Origin: Candidatus Pacebacteria bacterium CG_4_10_14_3_um_filter_34_15
GTDB lineage: Bacteria > Patescibacteriota > Microgenomatia > UBA1400 > PJMF01
Direction: 5' to 3'
Assembly (NCBI GenBank): GCA_002783105.1
Contig: PFJN01000044.1
Coordinates: forward strand, 1-44,118
Length of the DNA: 44,118 nucleotides
Positions 25,217 to 34,344 of this stretch are shown one piece after another (position 1 is the stretch's first letter; every line of letters begins with the position of its first letter). Made by a program: the position numbers and the translations under genes. The notes under the pieces were generated by a model. The model was not told where the DNA came from. It made no database searches and saw nothing but the letters and a program-made list of their open reading frames with translations.

Positions 25217-25954
25217 CTACCCACCAAACCTTCTGTTCCTTAAATAAAATTCTTCTAAAACTTCATCTAGTTTTTTTGCTGTGAAATCTGGAAAATTAAA
25301 CTTTGGAAAAATGATTTCTGCATATTGATGTTGCCAAGACATAAATCCTGAAAGCCTAGTGTTATCCTCACCGGTTCTAACAATTACTTCTGGATCTGGC
25401 ATATAACTAGTATCCAAATTTTCTGAAATTAATTTTTCATCAATTTGTTCTGGCTTTAATTTTCCATCAGCAACTTTTTTAGCGATCTTTTGCATAGTTC
25501 GCTTGATTTCGTCTCGACCACCATAATTCATTGCCAAGGTAACTGTGAATTGTTTTCCAGTATTTTTTAAAACATTTTTTTTGGTTTTTTCAACACCTTT
25601 TTTAATTCTCTCCTGAATATCTTTCTCAAAACCATTAATGTCTCCAATCATTTTAACTCTTATTCCTTTTTTGCTCCATTCATCCAATCTTTCATCAAAA
25701 ACTTTTCTGAATAAATTCATTAAAAAATCAACTTCGATCTTTTCTCTTTTCCAATTTTCGGTGCTAAATATCCAAAACGTTAAATATTCCAAGCCTATTT
25801 CAATACTGCGATCTATTAAAGTTTCAAAAACTTCATTAACCGCTTTTTCGTGACCCATGAAAACTTTGAGACCTCTTTTTCTAGCCCAAGTTCTGTTGCC
25901 ATCACAAATGATAGCGACATGTTTTGGTGGAATATTTTTTTTCATTTTTAACAT
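25217..25954 (-). CDS. uppS: Isoprenyl transferase (undecaprenyl diphosphate synthase family)
   Basis: HVAIICDGNRTWARKRG, NYGGRDEI, PEVIVRTGEDNTRLSGFMSWQHQYAEIIF. Confidence 0.95.
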   Translation of the reverse strand: MLKMKKNIPPKHVAIICDGNRTWARKRGLKVFMGHEKAVNEVFETLIDRSIEIGLEYLTFWIFSTENWKREKIEVDFLMNLFRKVFDERLDEWSKKGIRVKMIGDINGFEKDIQERIKKGVEKTKKNVLKNTGKQFTVTLAMNYGGRDEIKRTMQKIAKKVADGKLKPEQIDEKLISENLDTSYMPDPEVIVRTGEDNTRLSGFMSWQHQYAEIIFPKFNFPDFTAKKLDEVLEEFYLRNRRFGG

Positions 25955-25987: not shown

Positions 25988-27001
25988 TTAAAACAAGTGA
26001 TCTTCTAAATATTCTGGTTTACCTCCAACTTTTGCAGTCAGTGTTTTTTTAACTAAGTCTAAACTATCCAATCTGTTTTGAACTTTTTCTTCAAACTCTG
26101 GCAATGTTAAAACATGAACATTAAAGCCAGTGTTGATTGTAAAATAGCACTCAATTCCTTCGGCTCTCATCTTTTGAACTTCATGAATAATTTGCAAAGT
26201 TCCTGGATACCACAAAACCATAGGTGGTTGGCTTGTTAATAAAATACTATGAAATTCTAGACACTCTGCTTCAATTAAAGATCCAAGCGAAGAAAAATCC
26301 TTCTTTTCTATAAATTTTTTTGTATCTTCAATTTTTTGTTTGATATTTTTTTGTCTAGCTTCGAAAAATATGCTTGATCCCGCTAATGTATGGCCTTCTG
26401 TTGATGAAATTTTTTTCTTTCCAAAATCAACAACAGCCACAATGTCTCTAATATCCCAATATTTTTGATCAAAGATTGTTTTTGAATACGAGGTTTCGGA
26501 AGTTTCTCCGTCAAGCCATTCTACAAATCCGCCTAAAGCACACCTGCAAGCGGTTCCAGACGCCTGTCGACTTAAAATACTTAATTCTTTTTCATTTAAA
26601 TCTAAACCAATAGCTTTGGTGGCGGCAAAAGTTAAAGCAGCCATTCCAGATCCAGAACTAGAAAGACCTGTACTTCTTGGAAATGAGTTTTCTGATACTA
26701 CTTTGGCAAATTGATTGGAGTTGGATATGTTTTGTTCTTTTGCTAAAGCTCTAATTTTATCTAAATGTTTAATCACTCTTTTTAATTCAATTGAAGTAGA
26801 ATCTATAATTTCTCCTTCTATGCTTAACTCATCTGCTGATAATTCTGGAATAAACTCAACTGTTGTAATCGTGTCTAGACCTTCTAACTTGATAGAAATA
26901 CTCCCATTTTCAGGAAGTCTTAGAATTTCATCTTTTTTGCCCCAATACTTTACTAAAGATATATCGCTTGATGCCTTGACGGTTGATTTGTTTAATTCCA
27001 T
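25988..27001 (-). CDS. Diphosphomevalonate decarboxylase family protein with variant active site
   Basis: SLVKYWGKKDEILRLPENGSISIKL, TGLSSSGSGMAALTFA, ASGTACRCALGGFVEWLDG; catalytic motif region reads YFTINTGFNVHVL. Confidence 0.9.
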   Translation of the reverse strand: MELNKSTVKASSDISLVKYWGKKDEILRLPENGSISIKLEGLDTITTVEFIPELSADELSIEGEIIDSTSIELKRVIKHLDKIRALAKEQNISNSNQFAKVVSENSFPRSTGLSSSGSGMAALTFAATKAIGLDLNEKELSILSRQASGTACRCALGGFVEWLDGETSETSYSKTIFDQKYWDIRDIVAVVDFGKKKISSTEGHTLAGSSIFFEARQKNIKQKIEDTKKFIEKKDFSSLGSLIEAECLEFHSILLTSQPPMVLWYPGTLQIIHEVQKMRAEGIECYFTINTGFNVHVLTLPEFEEKVQNRLDSLDLVKKTLTAKVGGKPEYLEDHLF

Positions 27002-27047
27002 AAAAATCCTCAACTTATTATACTAAAAACAGAGTGTGATATTTTAA

Positions 27048-28022
27048 TTATTTTTCAACCCGCACACCCTCAACATTTGTTTGTACTTTTATTACTTGAC
27101 CTCCAGAACGAGTTATTGCTTCCTCAACATCTACAACTTTATTAGTTGGAGTTAACGCAATCATACAATCTCCAATTCCAGCTCCTGACAACTTAGCTCC
27201 CCACGCTCCAGCGTCGCGCGCAGCATAAATCATTGCAGACAATTTTGCACTTCCGACACCCAATGCTTCCAGCATTCCTTGGTCAAAATTCATTAGCTCT
27301 CCAACAACCGGTAAAGTTTTTGCCATAAACGCAACCTTAGTGGCTTCAACCATTTTACCAATGTGCATATAGATTGAGTCTATCAAATCTGGGTGGCGAG
27401 ATGCTTTTTCTGCAACTGCCTGTATCAGAGTTACTGTATCTGCTTTTATGCCTGTGTAACCAACAACTAAAGGCAACTCCTTAATTTCTATTGGCTCTAT
27501 CACTTTTCCCCCAGTAACAAAATATAATGTACCCCCATAAATAGCAGCCGCAACATCAAATCCTGAACCTTTTCCCTGAATATCAAGAACTGTTTGATAT
27601 GCTAAATTAAAAATATCTTTATTTGATAGTTTAATATCAAATATAACAGCTAAACCCTTAATCACGCATACTGTTGATGCAGAAGAAGATCCAAATCCAA
27701 ACTGTGATGAAAATTCTGATTTAGTCTTTATTCGAATGCCTGAATTTATCTTATATTTTTCATTAAAATTTTTAACCGCCATCTCCACAAATTTTGCACC
27801 TTTTGAGATATCTCCCAAACCTAGGTCTGTTAATGATTTACTATAACCAGTTACTCCAACATCTTCAGCCTCAAGTTCAAGTCTTTTTTCAGATATTATC
27901 TCTAGCGTAACACTAAGTCTTTGTCCTACTGCTGTCACTATGCACGGACGATTGTAAACTACGGCATGTTCTCCAAGAAGCATAAGCTTTCCTGGTGCTG
28001 AAACAGTTACTTGTTTTTTCAT
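27048..28022 (-). CDS. GHMP kinase, mevalonate/phosphomevalonate kinase-like
   Basis: SAPGKLMLLGEHAVVYNRP, FGFGSSSASTV, GKGSGFDVAAAIYGGTLYF (PMK-like), KLSGAGIGDCMIAL. Confidence 0.85.
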   Translation of the reverse strand: MKKQVTVSAPGKLMLLGEHAVVYNRPCIVTAVGQRLSVTLEIISEKRLELEAEDVGVTGYSKSLTDLGLGDISKGAKFVEMAVKNFNEKYKINSGIRIKTKSEFSSQFGFGSSSASTVCVIKGLAVIFDIKLSNKDIFNLAYQTVLDIQGKGSGFDVAAAIYGGTLYFVTGGKVIEPIEIKELPLVVGYTGIKADTVTLIQAVAEKASRHPDLIDSIYMHIGKMVEATKVAFMAKTLPVVGELMNFDQGMLEALGVGSAKLSAMIYAARDAGAWGAKLSGAGIGDCMIALTPTNKVVDVEEAITRSGGQVIKVQTNVEGVRVEK

Positions 28023-28065: not shown

Positions 28066-28857
28066 TTAACTAAGTTTTATTGCTTTGAGTACAACTAACG
28101 GGTAATCAATTTTTAAACCATCTGAATCTTGACGTATATTAAACACTTCTTTTATGTGATCTGGCGCATCTACTATCTTTTGATTTAATTTACCTAATTG
28201 TTCCTCTGTTACCTGTTTGCTTTTCTTCCATGCACTTGTATTAACATAGCTTACTGATCTACCAAAAACCTCTGTCTTAAAACCAGCCTTTTCTAATAAC
28301 TCAATCCATTCTGATTCTGATGGAATATTACATTTTCCTTCAGTTTGTGGATTTCTGCCACTAAGTTCTTGTTTTAAAGCATGTTGAGCATTTAGCCACT
28401 CACCCGTACCTTCTGGAGATATCATGTCTGCTACAATCAGACATCCGTTAGGTTTTAAAATTCTGAATAATCCTTCAATAACTTCTGGTTGAACATCAGC
28501 GGTTAAATCCTTAATACCAAAACGCACAACAACAACATCAAATGATTCATAAACAATAGGCAATGACTGAACCTCAGCAAGTATACGTAAATTTGACACT
28601 TCTGGTGATATTTTCGAAAGCTGAGAGCCTGCAAAATCTAAACAATAATAATTAGCAGGAGATTTGTTTACCAATTCACCTGTCAACTTCCCTGGACCAG
28701 ACATAAGATCTAATACCTTTGGGTCTTCTGATGTTTCATTTAATCCTGTAGCAAGGTAAATTATTTCTACAAATGATTTATCGCGATATATTGTAGGAGC
28801 TGCATCAAAAGTACGTTTATTATATGCTTCTTTCAGATTAAAATTTTCTTTTCTCAT
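28066..28857 (-). CDS. Class I SAM-dependent methyltransferase
   Basis: KVLDLMSGPGKLTGELV, SFDVVVVRFGIKDL, EGLFRILKPNGCLIVADM. Confidence 0.9.
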   Translation of the reverse strand: MRKENFNLKEAYNKRTFDAAPTIYRDKSFVEIIYLATGLNETSEDPKVLDLMSGPGKLTGELVNKSPANYYCLDFAGSQLSKISPEVSNLRILAEVQSLPIVYESFDVVVVRFGIKDLTADVQPEVIEGLFRILKPNGCLIVADMISPEGTGEWLNAQHALKQELSGRNPQTEGKCNIPSESEWIELLEKAGFKTEVFGRSVSYVNTSAWKKSKQVTEEQLGKLNQKIVDAPDHIKEVFNIRQDSDGLKIDYPLVVLKAIKLS

Positions 28858-28882: not shown

Positions 28883-29779
28883 CTATTTTATTTCAATTTT
28901 GTAACTTTCTATAGTATTTTGACTTAAAAATTCTTTCAATCCATCTTTATTTGGATGATATGCCAAAATCCAACCAGAACCTTTTTTGACTCCACCCGCA
29001 CCTGTAATTTTTGCAAATCCTCCCTGATTTTCAATTTCTTTAATCATATTTTTTGCTTTCAAACTAACCACACCAAGTTTTTCTAATAATCTTTCGTTTT
29101 GAGTAAGTAAACATGGATCAAAATTTTTATCTTTAATACTCTCAATCATATTGAAAGTAACTCGGCCGATATCTTTAATTATTTTTGAATTATTTTTGTT
29201 TGATTCTACCTTTGTTTTTACAAGGCTTACCATTTCACCCGTACTTTCTTCAGGTTTTCCAGAATTAACTAAAATAAAGTCCATTTTAGAAAAACTTTTT
29301 AGCATCTTTCTTTTTCCTTTTCTAAATATTTGAACTCCCCCAAATACAACTGCAGAAGGATCAGTCCCACTTGAATTACCATGAATAAATTTTTCAGCCT
29401 GCCAAACTAAATTAAAAATTTCTTCTTCTGGTAAAATTAAATTGAAATGATTGAGCAAACATAAAAAAACCACATGTGCATATGCAGCTGAAGATCCCAG
29501 CCCAGATTTTCTAGGTAAATTCGAAGTTACTTTTATTTCCAAGTTATCTGTATTTAGATTTTTGCTTGAAAATTTTTCTTTAAAAATTTTAAAAATATGA
29601 TTCAAATATCCTGCCTTTGAATTTTTATTAACTTCTTTCGTTCTCTCTTCCACACTAGCCTTAATACCTAAGTTAATTGCAGATATTAAAGCAGGTTCTC
29701 CATAAACAACACTATGTTCTCCACTCAAAATAACTTTTCCAGATGAAAAAAAGATTTTGCTTTTTGAATTATTAATCAT
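28883..29779 (-). CDS. GHMP kinase, mevalonate kinase-like
   Basis: FFSSGKVILSGEHSVVYGEPAL, PRKSGLGSSAAYAHV, EKFIHGNSSGTDPSAVVFGG, KITGAGGVKKGSG. Confidence 0.88.
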   Translation of the reverse strand: MINNSKSKIFFSSGKVILSGEHSVVYGEPALISAINLGIKASVEERTKEVNKNSKAGYLNHIFKIFKEKFSSKNLNTDNLEIKVTSNLPRKSGLGSSAAYAHVVFLCLLNHFNLILPEEEIFNLVWQAEKFIHGNSSGTDPSAVVFGGVQIFRKGKRKMLKSFSKMDFILVNSGKPEESTGEMVSLVKTKVESNKNNSKIIKDIGRVTFNMIESIKDKNFDPCLLTQNERLLEKLGVVSLKAKNMIKEIENQGGFAKITGAGGVKKGSGWILAYHPNKDGLKEFLSQNTIESYKIEIK

Positions 29780-29788
29780 ATTTGTCAG

Positions 29789-30085
29789 TTATTTTTTTAA
29801 TACCAACTTAATTCCATAATTTATCAGAGAAGAATTATTTGAATCACTCACTTTTCTAAAAACAAACTCTACCTTGTCACCTTTTTTAAGCTCAATACCT
29901 TTTTCACCCATAAATTCATATCTTTCACCGTCCATTTCGACAATTGCGAAACAATAAGGAAGAAAAGACTGCAACTCTGGAGATGTTACTTCTACTCTAG
30001 TCACAAAAACTACCTCTCCTAATTTTCCAACAAAATTATTCCAATTTTTATTTTTACGCCAATAGTTAGCAGGATTAAGTAGCAT
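29789..30085 (-). CDS. DUF35-like OB-fold protein lacking a zinc ribbon
   Basis: NYWRKNKNWNNFVGKLGEVVFVTR...LPYCFAIVEMDGERYEFMGEKGIELKKGDKVEFVFRKV...INYGIKLVL; directly downstream of thiolase and HMGS. Confidence 0.65.
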   Translation of the reverse strand: MLLNPANYWRKNKNWNNFVGKLGEVVFVTRVEVTSPELQSFLPYCFAIVEMDGERYEFMGEKGIELKKGDKVEFVFRKVSDSNNSSLINYGIKLVLKK

Positions 30086-30086
30086 A

Positions 30087-31319
30087 TTATTTCTCCAAGA
30101 TATGAACTACTACTGTTGCTCCGCTTCCACCAACATTATGCGCAAGTGCATATTTAAAATTCATTATTTTTTTTGATCGGTCTGTTTTAACTTTAATTCC
30201 ATTCTCAAGTAACTCTGCTAAATATGCCACTTGTTTAACTCCAGTAGCACCGACAGGATGTCCGCACGCTTTTAATCCTCCAGAAGGATTAATTAAAACT
30301 TTTCCACCAAAGGTGGTTTGCCCATCAAGCGTTGCCTGACCGCCAGTGCCTTTTTTGAAAAATCCTAAATCCTCAATCGCTAAAATTTCTGCGATCGTAA
30401 AACAATCGTGAACTTCGGCGACCTCAATATCTTTTGAGGTTAGACCCGCTTGTTTAAAGGCATCTTTTGCTGCCTTAATTGTGGCATTAAGACTAGTTAA
30501 ACTTTTTCTATTAGCCAAACTTAAAAAATCTTGAGCATGACCCATGCCAATAATTTTTGGCTTATTTTTATAGTTGACTGTTTTACCATCCAATAATTTT
30601 CCCGAATCTTTTGTACTTAAAATCACCGCACTTGATCCATCTGAAACCGGTGAGCAATCGAGTAATCGTAAAGGATCTGCTACCATCGAACTCTGACTTA
30701 CTTGCTCCAAAGTAAATAATTTATTAAAATGGGCTTTAGAATTGGTTAATGCATGGGCATGATTTTTAACTGAGACTGCTGATAATTGTTCACGTGTAGT
30801 TCCATATTTATGCATATGAGCTTTAGCTAATAATGCATACAAAGCTGGAAAAGTGCTCCCATACTCAAAATTATAGTCAGAAGCCGATGATAAAACCTTA
30901 GTTGCTTCATTAGAATTAAAATCAGTCATTTTTTCTACACCTAGAACCATTACTGTTTTATATCTGCCAGAATTTAATGCATCTTGGGCTGTAATCATCG
31001 CCAAACTGCCAGAAGCGCAGGCTCCCTCTACTCTAATAGATGGAGGAAAATGTTCAAATAATTCACTCACAACTGCATTTAAATGCAACTGATTATTAAA
31101 TATTCCTGAAGCCATGTTGGCAATATAAACTGCCTCAATTTCTTTTGGATCAAAATCGCCATCCTTTGAAACATTCTTAAGAACTCCAAAAACTGCCTCT
31201 TTTATTAAATCATTAAGTGACTTATCCCAAAGCTCACCAAAATGATCGGAGATAAATGAGCCAACTATCTTTACCGATTTTATTTCTCTAACCGCGTTTT
31301 TATCAGTTTGTTTTTTCAT
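30087..31319 (-). CDS. Archaeal-type acetyl-CoA acetyltransferase (thiolase)
   Basis: RVEGACASGSLAM, VAEVHDCFTIAEI, NPSGGLKACGHPVGATGVKQ. Confidence 0.92.
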   Translation of the reverse strand: MKKQTDKNAVREIKSVKIVGSFISDHFGELWDKSLNDLIKEAVFGVLKNVSKDGDFDPKEIEAVYIANMASGIFNNQLHLNAVVSELFEHFPPSIRVEGACASGSLAMITAQDALNSGRYKTVMVLGVEKMTDFNSNEATKVLSSASDYNFEYGSTFPALYALLAKAHMHKYGTTREQLSAVSVKNHAHALTNSKAHFNKLFTLEQVSQSSMVADPLRLLDCSPVSDGSSAVILSTKDSGKLLDGKTVNYKNKPKIIGMGHAQDFLSLANRKSLTSLNATIKAAKDAFKQAGLTSKDIEVAEVHDCFTIAEILAIEDLGFFKKGTGGQATLDGQTTFGGKVLINPSGGLKACGHPVGATGVKQVAYLAELLENGIKVKTDRSKKIMNFKYALAHNVGGSGATVVVHILEK

Positions 31320-31351
31320 AATTTTATGTCCCAACTACCTTTATGTCCTAG

Positions 31352-32410
31352 CTATTCTGTGTTTTTAATATAGGTGTGATAACTCACTTCTTTCATACTT
31401 TCAATTTGGTTTCTCAAAAATCTTTTCCAAGTTTTTCTTTTCTTTTCCAAAAGGCTGGTTGTCTCAAATGCAAATGCGTCACTGCCTGACCCAGAACCAT
31501 ACGAAACCATCAGAATTTTCTGTCCTTTTGTAGCAATATCTAAAACTGAAGATAAGGCAATTAAACTAGCTGCAGAATAAACGTTACCAATTTTATCAAC
31601 CACCAAACTTGGTTTGAGTTGTTCGGGGGTAAAACCTAAGCTTTTAGCAATCATTTTTGGGAATTTGGCATTGGGTGTATGAAAAACACAGTAATCAAAA
31701 TCTTTAGGCTTCATCTTTAAATCGGCCATAATTTTTTTGGCAGCCAAAGCAATGTGATAAAAATATGCAGGCTCACCACTAAATCTTCCAGCATGCTCTG
31801 GATACTTCATCCTTGGTCTTCTCCAAAAATCTGGGGTGTCTGTGGCAACTGAAGCTGTGCCCAATAGTTTTGCAATAATATTTTGTGTCCCTACTAAAAA
31901 CGCTGCTGATCCTGCTCCAGCCGTATATTCTAATACATCTCCTGGACGTGATTGAGCTGTATCTGATCCAATGGCTAAACCATTTTTTGAGATTCCTGAA
32001 CCAATATAAGCAAAACAGATTTGCAAAGCTTGAGTTCCAGCCTTACAAGCAAACTGTAAATCTGCCATTGATAAATTATCAGAAAGTCCAAGAGCTTGTT
32101 TTACCATTGTTCCAGTTGGCTTAACTGCATACGGATGACTTTCACTACCAATAAACAAACAACTAATGTCATTTTTGTTATTACTCTTTGAATCACTAAA
32201 AAATCTTTTAATAGCCTGCGAGCCAGATTGAACAGATATTGTTGTCGTATCTTCGTCAATCGATGGAACACTTTTTTGAAAAACTCCTAATGACTTATAT
32301 ATATCGGATCCAAATTTTTCCTGAGCTGCTTCAATATTTTTCCCTGTAACAAAATTACCGGGAATGTATGATCCATAGGAAACTATTCCTAAATCGCTTG
32401 TATTATTCAT
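31352..32410 (-). CDS. Archaeal-type hydroxymethylglutaryl-CoA synthase
   Basis: LGIVSYGSYIPGNFV, LQFACKAGTQALQICFAYI, YCVFHTPNAKFPKMIAKSLGF; start trimmed to MNNTSDLG. Confidence 0.9.
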   Translation of the reverse strand: MNNTSDLGIVSYGSYIPGNFVTGKNIEAAQEKFGSDIYKSLGVFQKSVPSIDEDTTTISVQSGSQAIKRFFSDSKSNNKNDISCLFIGSESHPYAVKPTGTMVKQALGLSDNLSMADLQFACKAGTQALQICFAYIGSGISKNGLAIGSDTAQSRPGDVLEYTAGAGSAAFLVGTQNIIAKLLGTASVATDTPDFWRRPRMKYPEHAGRFSGEPAYFYHIALAAKKIMADLKMKPKDFDYCVFHTPNAKFPKMIAKSLGFTPEQLKPSLVVDKIGNVYSAASLIALSSVLDIATKGQKILMVSYGSGSGSDAFAFETTSLLEKKRKTWKRFLRNQIESMKEVSYHTYIKNTE

Positions 32411-32411
32411 G

Positions 32412-33659
32412 TTATAAATTTGTGGTTCGACCACGTAGATTAAAGTTGCATCTAGCTAACTTTTGATGAGCGCTCGCTAATGAATTATTGGTGAGAGCGC
32501 ATAAACCAGAAATTTCGCCTGCTAAAGCTGCAACACCTGCACAAAGAGCTAAAATTGTTGAACTGGCAAGATTATTTTCTTTATCGTTCCCAGATAAAAT
32601 TAATGATCTTGCTTGTGTTTGCTTTGGTAGCCAAGTTCCACCACCAATACTCCCCACACTGACAGTTGGCAACGTTAGAGCCACATAAAGACCGTCACCA
32701 TCTTCTTCAAAAGTTACGGATGACTCGCTACCTCCCACGACATGTGCTGGATCCTGGCCGGTTGCTATATAAAATGCAGCCAAAGCATTTGCCACATGCA
32801 TATTTTGCGCCATCGAACCAGCCACATTGCTTCCAACTAAATTTTTGGCTACATGGCTTTTGACCAAATCTTTTGCATTTACATCAAAAATATCCGCCAA
32901 AATTTCTTTTGATAAAAAAGCCTCGAGTTCAACATTGAATCCTCTGCCAAACATACGATTTAGCACAGAATCTTTTTTATCAGTACAGACATTTCCTGAC
33001 AACGAAAGCAACTTTACTTTTTTATGATCTTCCTCAATCTTATTCCAAGCATATTTAAGAGCAATTGTTACCATATTCATGCCCATAGCTTCTTGCGTAT
33101 CAAAGCTGAATCTTAAGTAAACATGCCTGCCTCTTATAAATGACTGATAAGTTAAAAACTTAAGATGTTTACTTGTGCTTTCACAATAGTCGGCAAATGT
33201 CTTAATATTTTTATTCATCCAATCAATAAATTTATAAGCCTCTAGTGTACTGTCGCATCTGAATACTAGCGCACGTGCCATACCTACTTTGTTTATCACA
33301 ACTGAAAGATTGTCGGCTAAATTAAGAGCTTTACAGCCCCTATTTATTGAAGCGACCAAAGCACCCTCAGTTGTTGCTAAAGGTATAAAAATATCATCAA
33401 TTGATGATATTTCACCTTCTTTGTTAGCATCAATAAAATTTTTAACTTTAACTGGCCCCACTAATCCAACTGGTATTTCAATACTACCAATCATGTTTTC
33501 GCAATTGCTGCTTCCAGCTTTTTCTACAGGAAAATTAATATCAAAAAGTTCTTGGAAATCTCCAACTCGAGAACTTTTGACTAGTTCTTGCCTTTTCACG
33601 ACTTTTTCAACTTCAGAAAGATTCTCATCTCTGATATACAAACTAAATTTATGGGCCAT
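32412..33659 (-). CDS. Hydroxymethylglutaryl-CoA reductase, class I-like
   Basis: CENMIGSIEIPVGLVGPV, TTEGALVASINRGCKA, EAMGMNMVTIAL, CTDKK, VGSIGGGTWLPKQ. Confidence 0.96.
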   Translation of the reverse strand: MAHKFSLYIRDENLSEVEKVVKRQELVKSSRVGDFQELFDINFPVEKAGSSNCENMIGSIEIPVGLVGPVKVKNFIDANKEGEISSIDDIFIPLATTEGALVASINRGCKALNLADNLSVVINKVGMARALVFRCDSTLEAYKFIDWMNKNIKTFADYCESTSKHLKFLTYQSFIRGRHVYLRFSFDTQEAMGMNMVTIALKYAWNKIEEDHKKVKLLSLSGNVCTDKKDSVLNRMFGRGFNVELEAFLSKEILADIFDVNAKDLVKSHVAKNLVGSNVAGSMAQNMHVANALAAFYIATGQDPAHVVGGSESSVTFEEDGDGLYVALTLPTVSVGSIGGGTWLPKQTQARSLILSGNDKENNLASSTILALCAGVAALAGEISGLCALTNNSLASAHQKLARCNFNLRGRTTNL

Positions 33660-34344
33660 AACAACTTAGTCGTAAATTTGATGTGAAATCATGCAACTTT
33701 TTTAATTCTTCAGAAAGTCTTAAATCCTTCAACATCATACAAGCCCAAGGTGCTAAAAAAACTTTTTCTTCATTAATAGTTATTTCGCAAGGAGCTGTTT
33801 TTTGTTGAAGTTCATCCAAATCCATTATTAAAGTTTGTTCGGGTGAAGCAATTGAAGTCTTAAGATTAATTTGAGTAACTAGATCATCAAAGTTGACCCA
33901 AGCAACTCTAGCAACTTCATTTTCATTAATAATAATTTTCCCGTTGTAACTCCCAACATACACTTGATCAAATTCATGCTCACCATATTTATCATTACAA
34001 TAGGCTTTATACACAAATTTATAAATTGGTTGAATTTCTCCATCCAAATCTCCATATAAAATGCCAATTTCTTCTCTTAGTCTTCTTTTAGCACAGTCAA
34101 AATAAATTTCAGAAGGTCTCAAGTTTCCACAAATAGCATTTGCCCACCAGCCAGCACCAACAATTTTTTTAGCACTTCTTTCTTGCAATAAAACCTGACC
34201 TTTTTTATTTATTAGCCATACAGAAGAACACCGGTGGAGTTTCGCAGGGTGTTCGTGGGCCTCAAATTTATCCATTTGTCCAATGGGTTCATTATCTGGA
34301 TTTACTAATAAAACTTCATCGTCATGCACTGTCGATATATTCAT
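33649..34344 (-). CDS. idi: Isopentenyl-diphosphate delta-isomerase type I
   Basis: Nudix-type IDI-1: LHRCSSVWLINKKGQVLLQERS, GWWANAICGNLRPSE, CAKRRLREEIGI. Confidence 0.92.
   Translation of the reverse strand: MNISTVHDDEVLLVNPDNEPIGQMDKFEAHEHPAKLHRCSSVWLINKKGQVLLQERSAKKIVGAGWWANAICGNLRPSEIYFDCAKRRLREEIGILYGDLDGEIQPIYKFVYKAYCNDKYGEHEFDQVYVGSYNGKIIINENEVARVAWVNFDDLVTQINLKTSIASPEQTLIMDLDELQQKTAPCEITINEEKVFLAPWACMMLKDLRLSEELKKLHDFTSNLRLSCYGP

What the first reader, a model, noticed from the sequence alone, without database searches (positions are those of the whole stretch)
26080..26160. MvaD-family decarboxylase with Asn at the expected catalytic Asp
Sequence: codon AAC at 26132-26134 (minus strand) gives ECYFTINTGFNVHVL. 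Knowledge: diphosphomevalonate decarboxylases carry TMDAGPNVKVL/TFDAGPNA here, and this Asp is the catalytic residue acting on the C3 hydroxyl. The conserved Lys (KYWGK) and Arg (ACRC) of the triad look retained. Inference: either an unusual MDD, or a changed activity (3-kinase or phosphomevalonate decarboxylase) that reroutes the pathway.
Basis: partly seen in the sequence, partly recalled or inferred. Interest (0 to 1): 0.8.

Follow-up and report, generated by a model that had tools for sequence, protein, structure and literature searches.

The report
Mevalonate decarboxylase with swapped catalytic residue
A key enzyme of isoprenoid synthesis in a large group of tiny, mostly uncultivated bacteria has replaced the acid residue (aspartate) thought essential for its chemistry with a neutral one (asparagine), always together with a second change in the ATP-binding loop, which makes the disputed role of that residue directly testable.

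Summary
The ORF at 25988-27001 (-) encodes a diphosphomevalonate decarboxylase (MDD) family protein. Codon 26132-26134 gives Asn where MDDs carry the catalytic Asp (DAGP becomes NTGF). It is neither a one-off nor an error: 83 of 220 aligned homologues have Asn there, all but one in Patescibacteria. Every Asn enzyme also has Ser instead of Ala in the ATP phosphate-binding loop; no Asp enzyme does. The pair switches together several times on the tree. One enzyme nested among Asn enzymes (L210) changed only these two of 27 otherwise invariant positions.

The window holds one mevalonate operon (thiolase, HMGS, HMGR, isomerase-like Nudix, mevalonate kinase, a second kinase with a PMK-type motif, the decarboxylase, cis-prenyltransferase). 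The genome has no second decarboxylase, no isopentenyl phosphate kinase and no MEP-pathway IspG. Asn enzymes sit beside the PMK-like kinase (76/78) and never beside IPK (0/78; Asp enzymes 19/60). So it most likely is a working MVAPP decarboxylase with a neutral catalytic residue, not a 3-kinase or monophosphate decarboxylase. A published D281N mutant of the Sulfolobus enzyme kept its activity. I found no prior description of the natural Asn/Ser type. Catalysis itself is untested here.

The parts
25988..27001 (-). Asn-type diphosphomevalonate decarboxylase (MDD family), 337 aa from ATG 27001 (TTG call 27013, 341 aa)
   Evidence: TIGR01240 244 bits (cut-off 171); PF22700, PF18376; AlphaFold2 pLDDT 96.6, best PDB match Anaerolinea 6n0x TM 0.92-0.96
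26132..26134 (-). Asn290 (AAC) at the catalytic Asp position (E. faecalis D282, S. epidermidis D283, Sulfolobus D281)
26123..26134 (-). NTGF motif replacing DAGP (Asn290-Thr291-Gly292-Phe293)
26660..26662 (-). Ser114 (TCT) in the phosphate-binding loop (GLSSS vs GLASS), equivalent to E. faecalis A104; switches together with Asn290 in every homologue
26948..26950 (-). Lys18 of KYWGK, retained
26543..26545 (-). Arg153 of ACRC (S. epidermidis R144), retained
26414..26416 (-). Lys196 (E. faecalis K187), retained
27048..28022 (-). GHMP kinase with PMK-type motif QGKGSGFDVAAA (probable phosphomevalonate kinase derived from an archaeal-type mevalonate kinase)
   Evidence: almost mutually exclusive with neighbouring IPK (1 of 139 regions has both)
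28066..28857 (-). class I methyltransferase inserted between the two kinases (not part of the pathway core)
28883..29779 (-). mevalonate kinase (motif HGNSSGTD; 159 bits to TIGR00549, cut-off 163)
29789..30085 (-). small protein conserved next to the thiolase, no family match
30087..31334 (-). acetyl-CoA acetyltransferase (archaeal-type thiolase)
31352..32434 (-). HMG-CoA synthase, archaeal type (TIGR00748 395 bits, cut-off 353)
32412..33659 (-). HMG-CoA reductase (PF00368 326 bits)
33649..34344 (-). Nudix protein, best match type 1 IPP isomerase (just under cut-off)
25217..25954 (-). cis-prenyl (undecaprenyl) diphosphate synthase, consumer of IPP (TIGR00055 225 bits, cut-off 110)

Best explanation
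The gene encodes a working ATP-dependent mevalonate-5-diphosphate decarboxylase in a canonical (MVK-PMK-MDD) mevalonate pathway. Its lineage has exchanged the catalytic Asp for a neutral Asn together with Ala-to-Ser at the end of the ATP phosphate-binding loop. Shown here: the Asn, its conservation, the strict and repeated pairing with the Ser, the operon, and the absence of IPK, a second decarboxylase and IspG. Inferred: Asn290 holds and orients the C3 hydroxyl by hydrogen bonding, Lys196 and Mg2+ drive phosphoryl transfer, the transferred phosphate takes the proton, and the Ser114 hydroxyl helps place the gamma/3-phosphate or Asn290 itself, so that phosphate loss and decarboxylation proceed without a carboxylate. 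The product is IPP, used by the adjacent isomerase-like protein and cis-prenyltransferase.
For: Equivalog hit TIGR01240 244 bits, cut-off 171; confident model with MDD/PMD fold. One MDD in the genome, no IPK over cut-off, no IspG. PMK-type kinase adjacent in 76/78 Asn-type regions, IPK in 0/78 against 19/60 Asp-type (Fisher p 2e-8). All 83 Asn rows have Ser in the P-loop, 134/135 Asp rows Ala and one Gly. Best tree needs 5 Asn/Asp changes; one Asn clade is rejected (AU p 0.0004). L210, nested in an Asn clade, reverts exactly these two of 27 invariant positions. The gene is under purifying selection (dN 0.11, dS 0.76 for L275/L276). Published: Sulfolobus MDD D281N kept MDD activity while D281T/V became 3-kinases (PMC9254496), and Asp may act by orienting the 3-OH rather than as a base (PMC7414129).
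Against: No activity was measured. The substrate-pocket residues are mixed: Lys22 is MDD-like, but Arg28 and His204 resemble phosphomevalonate decarboxylases (eLife 00672 Table 4; Anaerolinea N20/H194). Picrophilus MBD D309N was inactive, and from memory Asp-to-Asn in yeast MDD cost about a thousandfold. The PMK role of the second kinase rests on motif and neighbourhood; its overall similarity is to mevalonate kinases.
Confidence: 0.8

Rival explanations
1. Phosphomevalonate (monophosphate) decarboxylase: it makes isopentenyl phosphate from MVAP, finished by an IPK-like kinase.
For: Closest solved structure by sequence and fold is Anaerolinea phosphomevalonate decarboxylase; Arg28 and His204 are as in such enzymes.
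Against: 184 bits against a cut-off of 475 for NF040704. No IPK over cut-off in any of 25 Asn-type genomes searched whole and none beside 78 Asn-type genes, whereas 19 of 60 Asp-type genes have one. An extra PMK-motif kinase is adjacent instead. Lys22 is the MDD state that the N20K/H194M Anaerolinea mutant was built to imitate.
Confidence: 0.1
2. 3-kinase: the Asn enzyme only phosphorylates C3 (MVA, MVAP or MVAPP 3-kinase) and another step removes phosphate and CO2, as in the Thermoplasma-type route.
For: D281T/V of the Sulfolobus enzyme became MVAPP 3-kinases, and mevalonate-3-kinase lacks the Asp (PMC9254496).
Against: In the same work D281N kept decarboxylase activity. NF040848 49 bits (cut-off 440) and NF040847 51 bits (cut-off 560) fail. 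No second MDD-family gene in the genome to act as bisphosphomevalonate decarboxylase, and no IPK.
Confidence: 0.05
3. Asn is a neutral or slightly harmful drift variant tolerated in reduced genomes, and the P-loop Ser is a coincidental lineage marker.
For: Reduced-genome, probably host-dependent lineage; Asn-type is clustered on the tree.
Against: Asn, Thr and Gly of NTG are invariant in 83 rows; purifying selection; the same two sites switch together in several separate places, including a two-site reversion.
Confidence: 0.05

Closest known systems
Diphosphomevalonate decarboxylase (MDD/DMD/MvaD; TIGR01240), e.g. S. epidermidis, E. faecalis, Saccharolobus solfataricus
   Same: Fold, KYWGK Lys, Arg153, ATP-loop Lys196, metal-binding Ser, genomic partnership with MVK and a PMK-type kinase; curated profile cut-off passed.
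   Different: Asn for the catalytic Asp, Thr for the next Ala, Phe/Gln/His for Pro, Ser for the P-loop Ala; Arg28 and His204 instead of Ile/Asn and Met.
Phosphomevalonate decarboxylase of Chloroflexota (Anaerolinea 6n0x, Roseiflexus)
   Same: Best structural and sequence match (39% identity); shares the Arg and His near the phosphate site.
   Different: Keeps the Asp and P-loop Ala; Asn20 where this has Lys22; works with IPK, which is absent here.
Engineered Sulfolobus MDD D281N (Motoyama 2017, as cited in PMC9254496)
   Same: Asn at the identical position, reported to keep MDD activity.
   Different: Laboratory mutant; I do not know its kinetics, and its P-loop residue was not compared here.
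Mevalonate-3-kinase and bisphosphomevalonate decarboxylase of Thermoplasmatales
   Same: Same superfamily; M3K also lacks the Asp.
   Different: Far below curated cut-offs; these pathways need IPK and a second decarboxylase homologue.

Membership tests
Diphosphomevalonate decarboxylase (canonical) | Passes curated equivalog profile TIGR01240 | tested here: met
   243.9 bits, cut-off 171.35
Diphosphomevalonate decarboxylase (canonical) | Catalytic Asp in DAGPN | tested here: not met
   Asn in NTGFN. Hence not filed as a canonical MDD but as an Asn-type variant of the family
Diphosphomevalonate decarboxylase (canonical) | Catalytic Lys, Arg and ATP-loop Lys | tested here: met
   K18, R153, K196 present and invariant in Asn-type rows
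Diphosphomevalonate decarboxylase (canonical) | Diphosphate-binding residues (Tyr, Lys, X, Ser, Ser, Ser) | tested here: inconclusive
   Tyr19, Lys22, Arg28, Ser, Thr, Ser; Arg28 is MPD-like
Diphosphomevalonate decarboxylase (canonical) | Pathway with PMK and without IPK | tested here: met
   PMK-motif kinase adjacent; no IPK over cut-off
Diphosphomevalonate decarboxylase (canonical) | MVAPP + ATP gives IPP + CO2 + Pi + ADP | not testable with these tools
   needs assay
Phosphomevalonate decarboxylase | Passes NF040704; IPK in genome | tested here: not met
   183.7 bits, cut-off 475; only a 24-bit partial match to the IPK profile (cut-off 120)
Mevalonate-3-kinase | Passes NF040848 / M3K_C PF21433 | tested here: not met
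   48.7 (cut-off 440), 21.4 (cut-off 27)
Bisphosphomevalonate decarboxylase | Passes NF040847; paired with a 3-kinase homologue | tested here: not met
   50.5 (cut-off 560); single MDD-family gene

The most novel reading that the evidence does not exclude
Asn290 and Ser114 form a second, evolutionarily interchangeable catalytic solution in ATP-dependent mevalonate decarboxylases: phosphoryl transfer and phosphate-loss/decarboxylation run without any carboxylate, with the P-loop Ser taking over part of the Asp's job, and natural lineages have moved back and forth between the two solutions.
Probability: 0.4. Interest if true: 0.75.

Novelty: new variant of a known kind. Interest (0 to 1): 0.62.

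Why it matters
Whether the conserved Asp of mevalonate decarboxylases is a general base, an orienting residue or a carbocation stabiliser is disputed (PMC7414129, PMC9254496). A natural lineage that lacks it, with one strictly coupled second site and a natural two-site revertant, offers a ready experiment: four enzyme versions (Asn/Ser, Asn/Ala, Asp/Ser, Asp/Ala) should show which step needs what. It also means that annotation by the catalytic Asp would wrongly call these enzymes dead or 3-kinases, and that the only IPP route found in these bacteria depends on the variant.

Tried and rejected
A sequencing error or pseudogene was rejected: relatives share the residue and the gene is under purifying selection. 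A misplaced alignment with another Asp doing the job was rejected; Glu249 ('LEFH') looked like a candidate replacement acid but is Asn/Asp in many Asn-type (NTGQ) rows, so it is not coupled. Lys223 is constant in Asn-type rows but also kept in the Asp revertant L210, so it is a lineage marker only. The archaeal anhydromevalonate route was rejected for this genome: no AcnX. The Motoyama 2017, Thomas 2019 and Hoshino 2018 papers are not held. The independent-pairs test had too few pairs for significance.

Full report
Observation. The minus-strand ORF 25988-27013 begins at TTG by the mechanical call, but an ATG four codons in (27001) with GAGG upstream is the likelier start; I number from that ATG (script outputs use numbers 4 higher). 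The codon 26134-26132 is AAC, Asn290, in ECYFTINTGFNVHVL. Alignments to solved enzymes place it at the catalytic Asp of DAGPN, corresponding to D282 of E. faecalis MDD. K18, R153 and the ATP-loop Lys K196 are present.

Family. The protein passes the MDD equivalog TIGR01240 (244 bits, cut-off 171) and fails those for phosphomevalonate decarboxylase (184 of 475), mevalonate-3-kinase (49 of 440) and bisphosphomevalonate decarboxylase (51 of 560). AlphaFold2 from window and homologue sequences gives pLDDT 96.6. The best PDB matches are Anaerolinea phosphomevalonate decarboxylase (TM 0.92/0.96), then staphylococcal and enterococcal MDD.

Context. The gene lies in one operon-like run, all on the minus strand: Nudix isomerase-like, HMG-CoA reductase, archaeal-type HMG-CoA synthase, thiolase, a small protein, mevalonate kinase (HGNSSGTD), a methyltransferase, a second GHMP kinase (QGKGSGFDVAAA), the decarboxylase, and cis-prenyltransferase. 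In Firmicutes operons the kinase upstream of MDD has HGxPSGID and the downstream one QGNGSGADVA, the usual MVK-MDD-PMK order, so the second kinase carries the PMK-type motif. The genome (1.0 Mb, 99% complete) has one MDD, no IPK above cut-off, no AcnX and no IspG. It is a patescibacterium: named relatives include Roizmanbacteria, Chisholmbacteria and other Microgenomates.

Distribution. Relatives, order, phylum and class searches plus named GTDB genomes gave 220 aligned homologues: 83 Asn, 135 Asp, two unreadable or truncated at the site (a few rows are duplicate records of one genome). Among the 138 patescibacterial regions scored there are 78 Asn (55 NTGQ, 16 NTGF, 7 NTGH) and 60 Asp. The only non-patescibacterial record with Asn is a contig binned as Chloroflexota (L092).

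Coupling. Site 114, at the end of the phosphate-binding loop (E. faecalis A104, two residues before the metal-binding S106), is Ser in all 83 Asn rows, and Ala in 134 and Gly in one of the 135 Asp rows. On trees built without the motif sites, Asn/Asp needs five changes; a single Asn clade is rejected (AU p 0.0004; the group was named after seeing the data, and many deep branches are weak). Site 114 follows in every case. L210 (genome G751) is nested inside an Asn clade with good support (97/87 and 98/92) and reads DTGQ with GLASS. It keeps Thr and Gln of the Asn-type motif; of 27 positions invariant in all Asn rows it changes only 114 and 290. The sites are 176 residues apart in sequence, so one short recombined tract is an unlikely cause. 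The number of independent events is small, so this is strong but not statistically overwhelming evidence for functional coupling.

Pathway association. The PMK-motif kinase is adjacent in 76/78 Asn regions and 32/60 Asp regions; IPK is adjacent in 0/78 and 19/60 (p 2e-8). Only 1 of 139 regions has both IPK and the PMK-like kinase (p 8e-14). Twenty-five Asn-type genomes searched whole have no IPK over cut-off. So the Asn type occurs in the route whose decarboxylase substrate is MVAPP and whose product is IPP directly. Pocket residues are mixed (Lys22 MDD-like; Arg28 and His204 MPD-like), so substrate preference rests on the pathway argument.

Mechanism. Published work shows that Asp-to-Thr/Val in the Sulfolobus enzyme leaves a 3-kinase, while D281N kept MDD activity; in Picrophilus bisphosphomevalonate decarboxylase D309N was dead (PMC9254496). 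The E. faecalis structures suggest the Asp orients the 3-OH and perhaps stabilises a carbocation, with the transferred phosphate as a possible proton acceptor (PMC7414129). An Asn can orient the hydroxyl but cannot be a base or supply charge. I infer that the Ser in the phosphate loop compensates by placing the phosphate or the Asn side chain; no distance could be measured.

Verdict. A real, conserved, natural Asn/Ser type of mevalonate decarboxylase. I found no description of the natural type in the open-access papers searched, but important subscription papers were not readable.

Noticed in passing
G005, G007, G010, G011, G013, G019, G020, G023, G026, G039, G041, G048, G050: Many related genomes have a good isopentenyl phosphate kinase but no MDD-family gene, no AcnX and no HMG-CoA reductase: IPK apparently without any mevalonate route, suggesting salvage of isopentenyl or prenyl phosphates. 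Whether they have the MEP pathway was not checked.
   Followed up: partly
L210 (G751:C6:12758-13732): Natural Asp/Ala revertant (DTGQ, GLASS) inside an Asn clade: the ideal partner for a comparative assay.
   Followed up: yes
L227 (G752:C21) and L232 (G601:C98): Asp-type enzymes grouping with Asn-type ones on the trees that have an IPK gene nearby; L227 has both IPK and the PMK-like kinase. Return to Asp may go with a switch to the IPK route.
   Followed up: partly
L274, L299, L300 (family f82: G382, G271, G290): Operons with mevalonate kinase and decarboxylase but neither the PMK-like kinase nor an IPK over cut-off in the genome; how IPP is completed is unclear.
   Followed up: no
G025 and G044 (L042, L036): Asn-type decarboxylase and PMK-like kinase present but no HMG-CoA reductase found; in G025 the mevalonate kinase is also not found. 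Possible scavenging of mevalonate or its phosphate, or missing contigs.
   Followed up: no
L092 (JAKOVF010000277.1, 'Chloroflexota bacterium JPNG_maxbin.044'): NTGF-type decarboxylase plus PMK-like kinase in a contig binned as Chloroflexota; misbinned patescibacterial contig or gene transfer.
   Followed up: no
G000:C70:11-727 (L054): A third mevalonate-kinase-like gene in the window's genome, cut off by the contig start.
   Followed up: partly
L098, L100 (Asgard), L109, L111 (Micrarchaeota): Decarboxylases reading DTG (Asp kept, Ala to Thr), showing that the Thr alone does not require Asn.
   Followed up: partly
window 28066-28857: Methyltransferase inserted between the two kinases; the scoring found a methyltransferase at the same place in L235, L244 and L281.
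   Followed up: no
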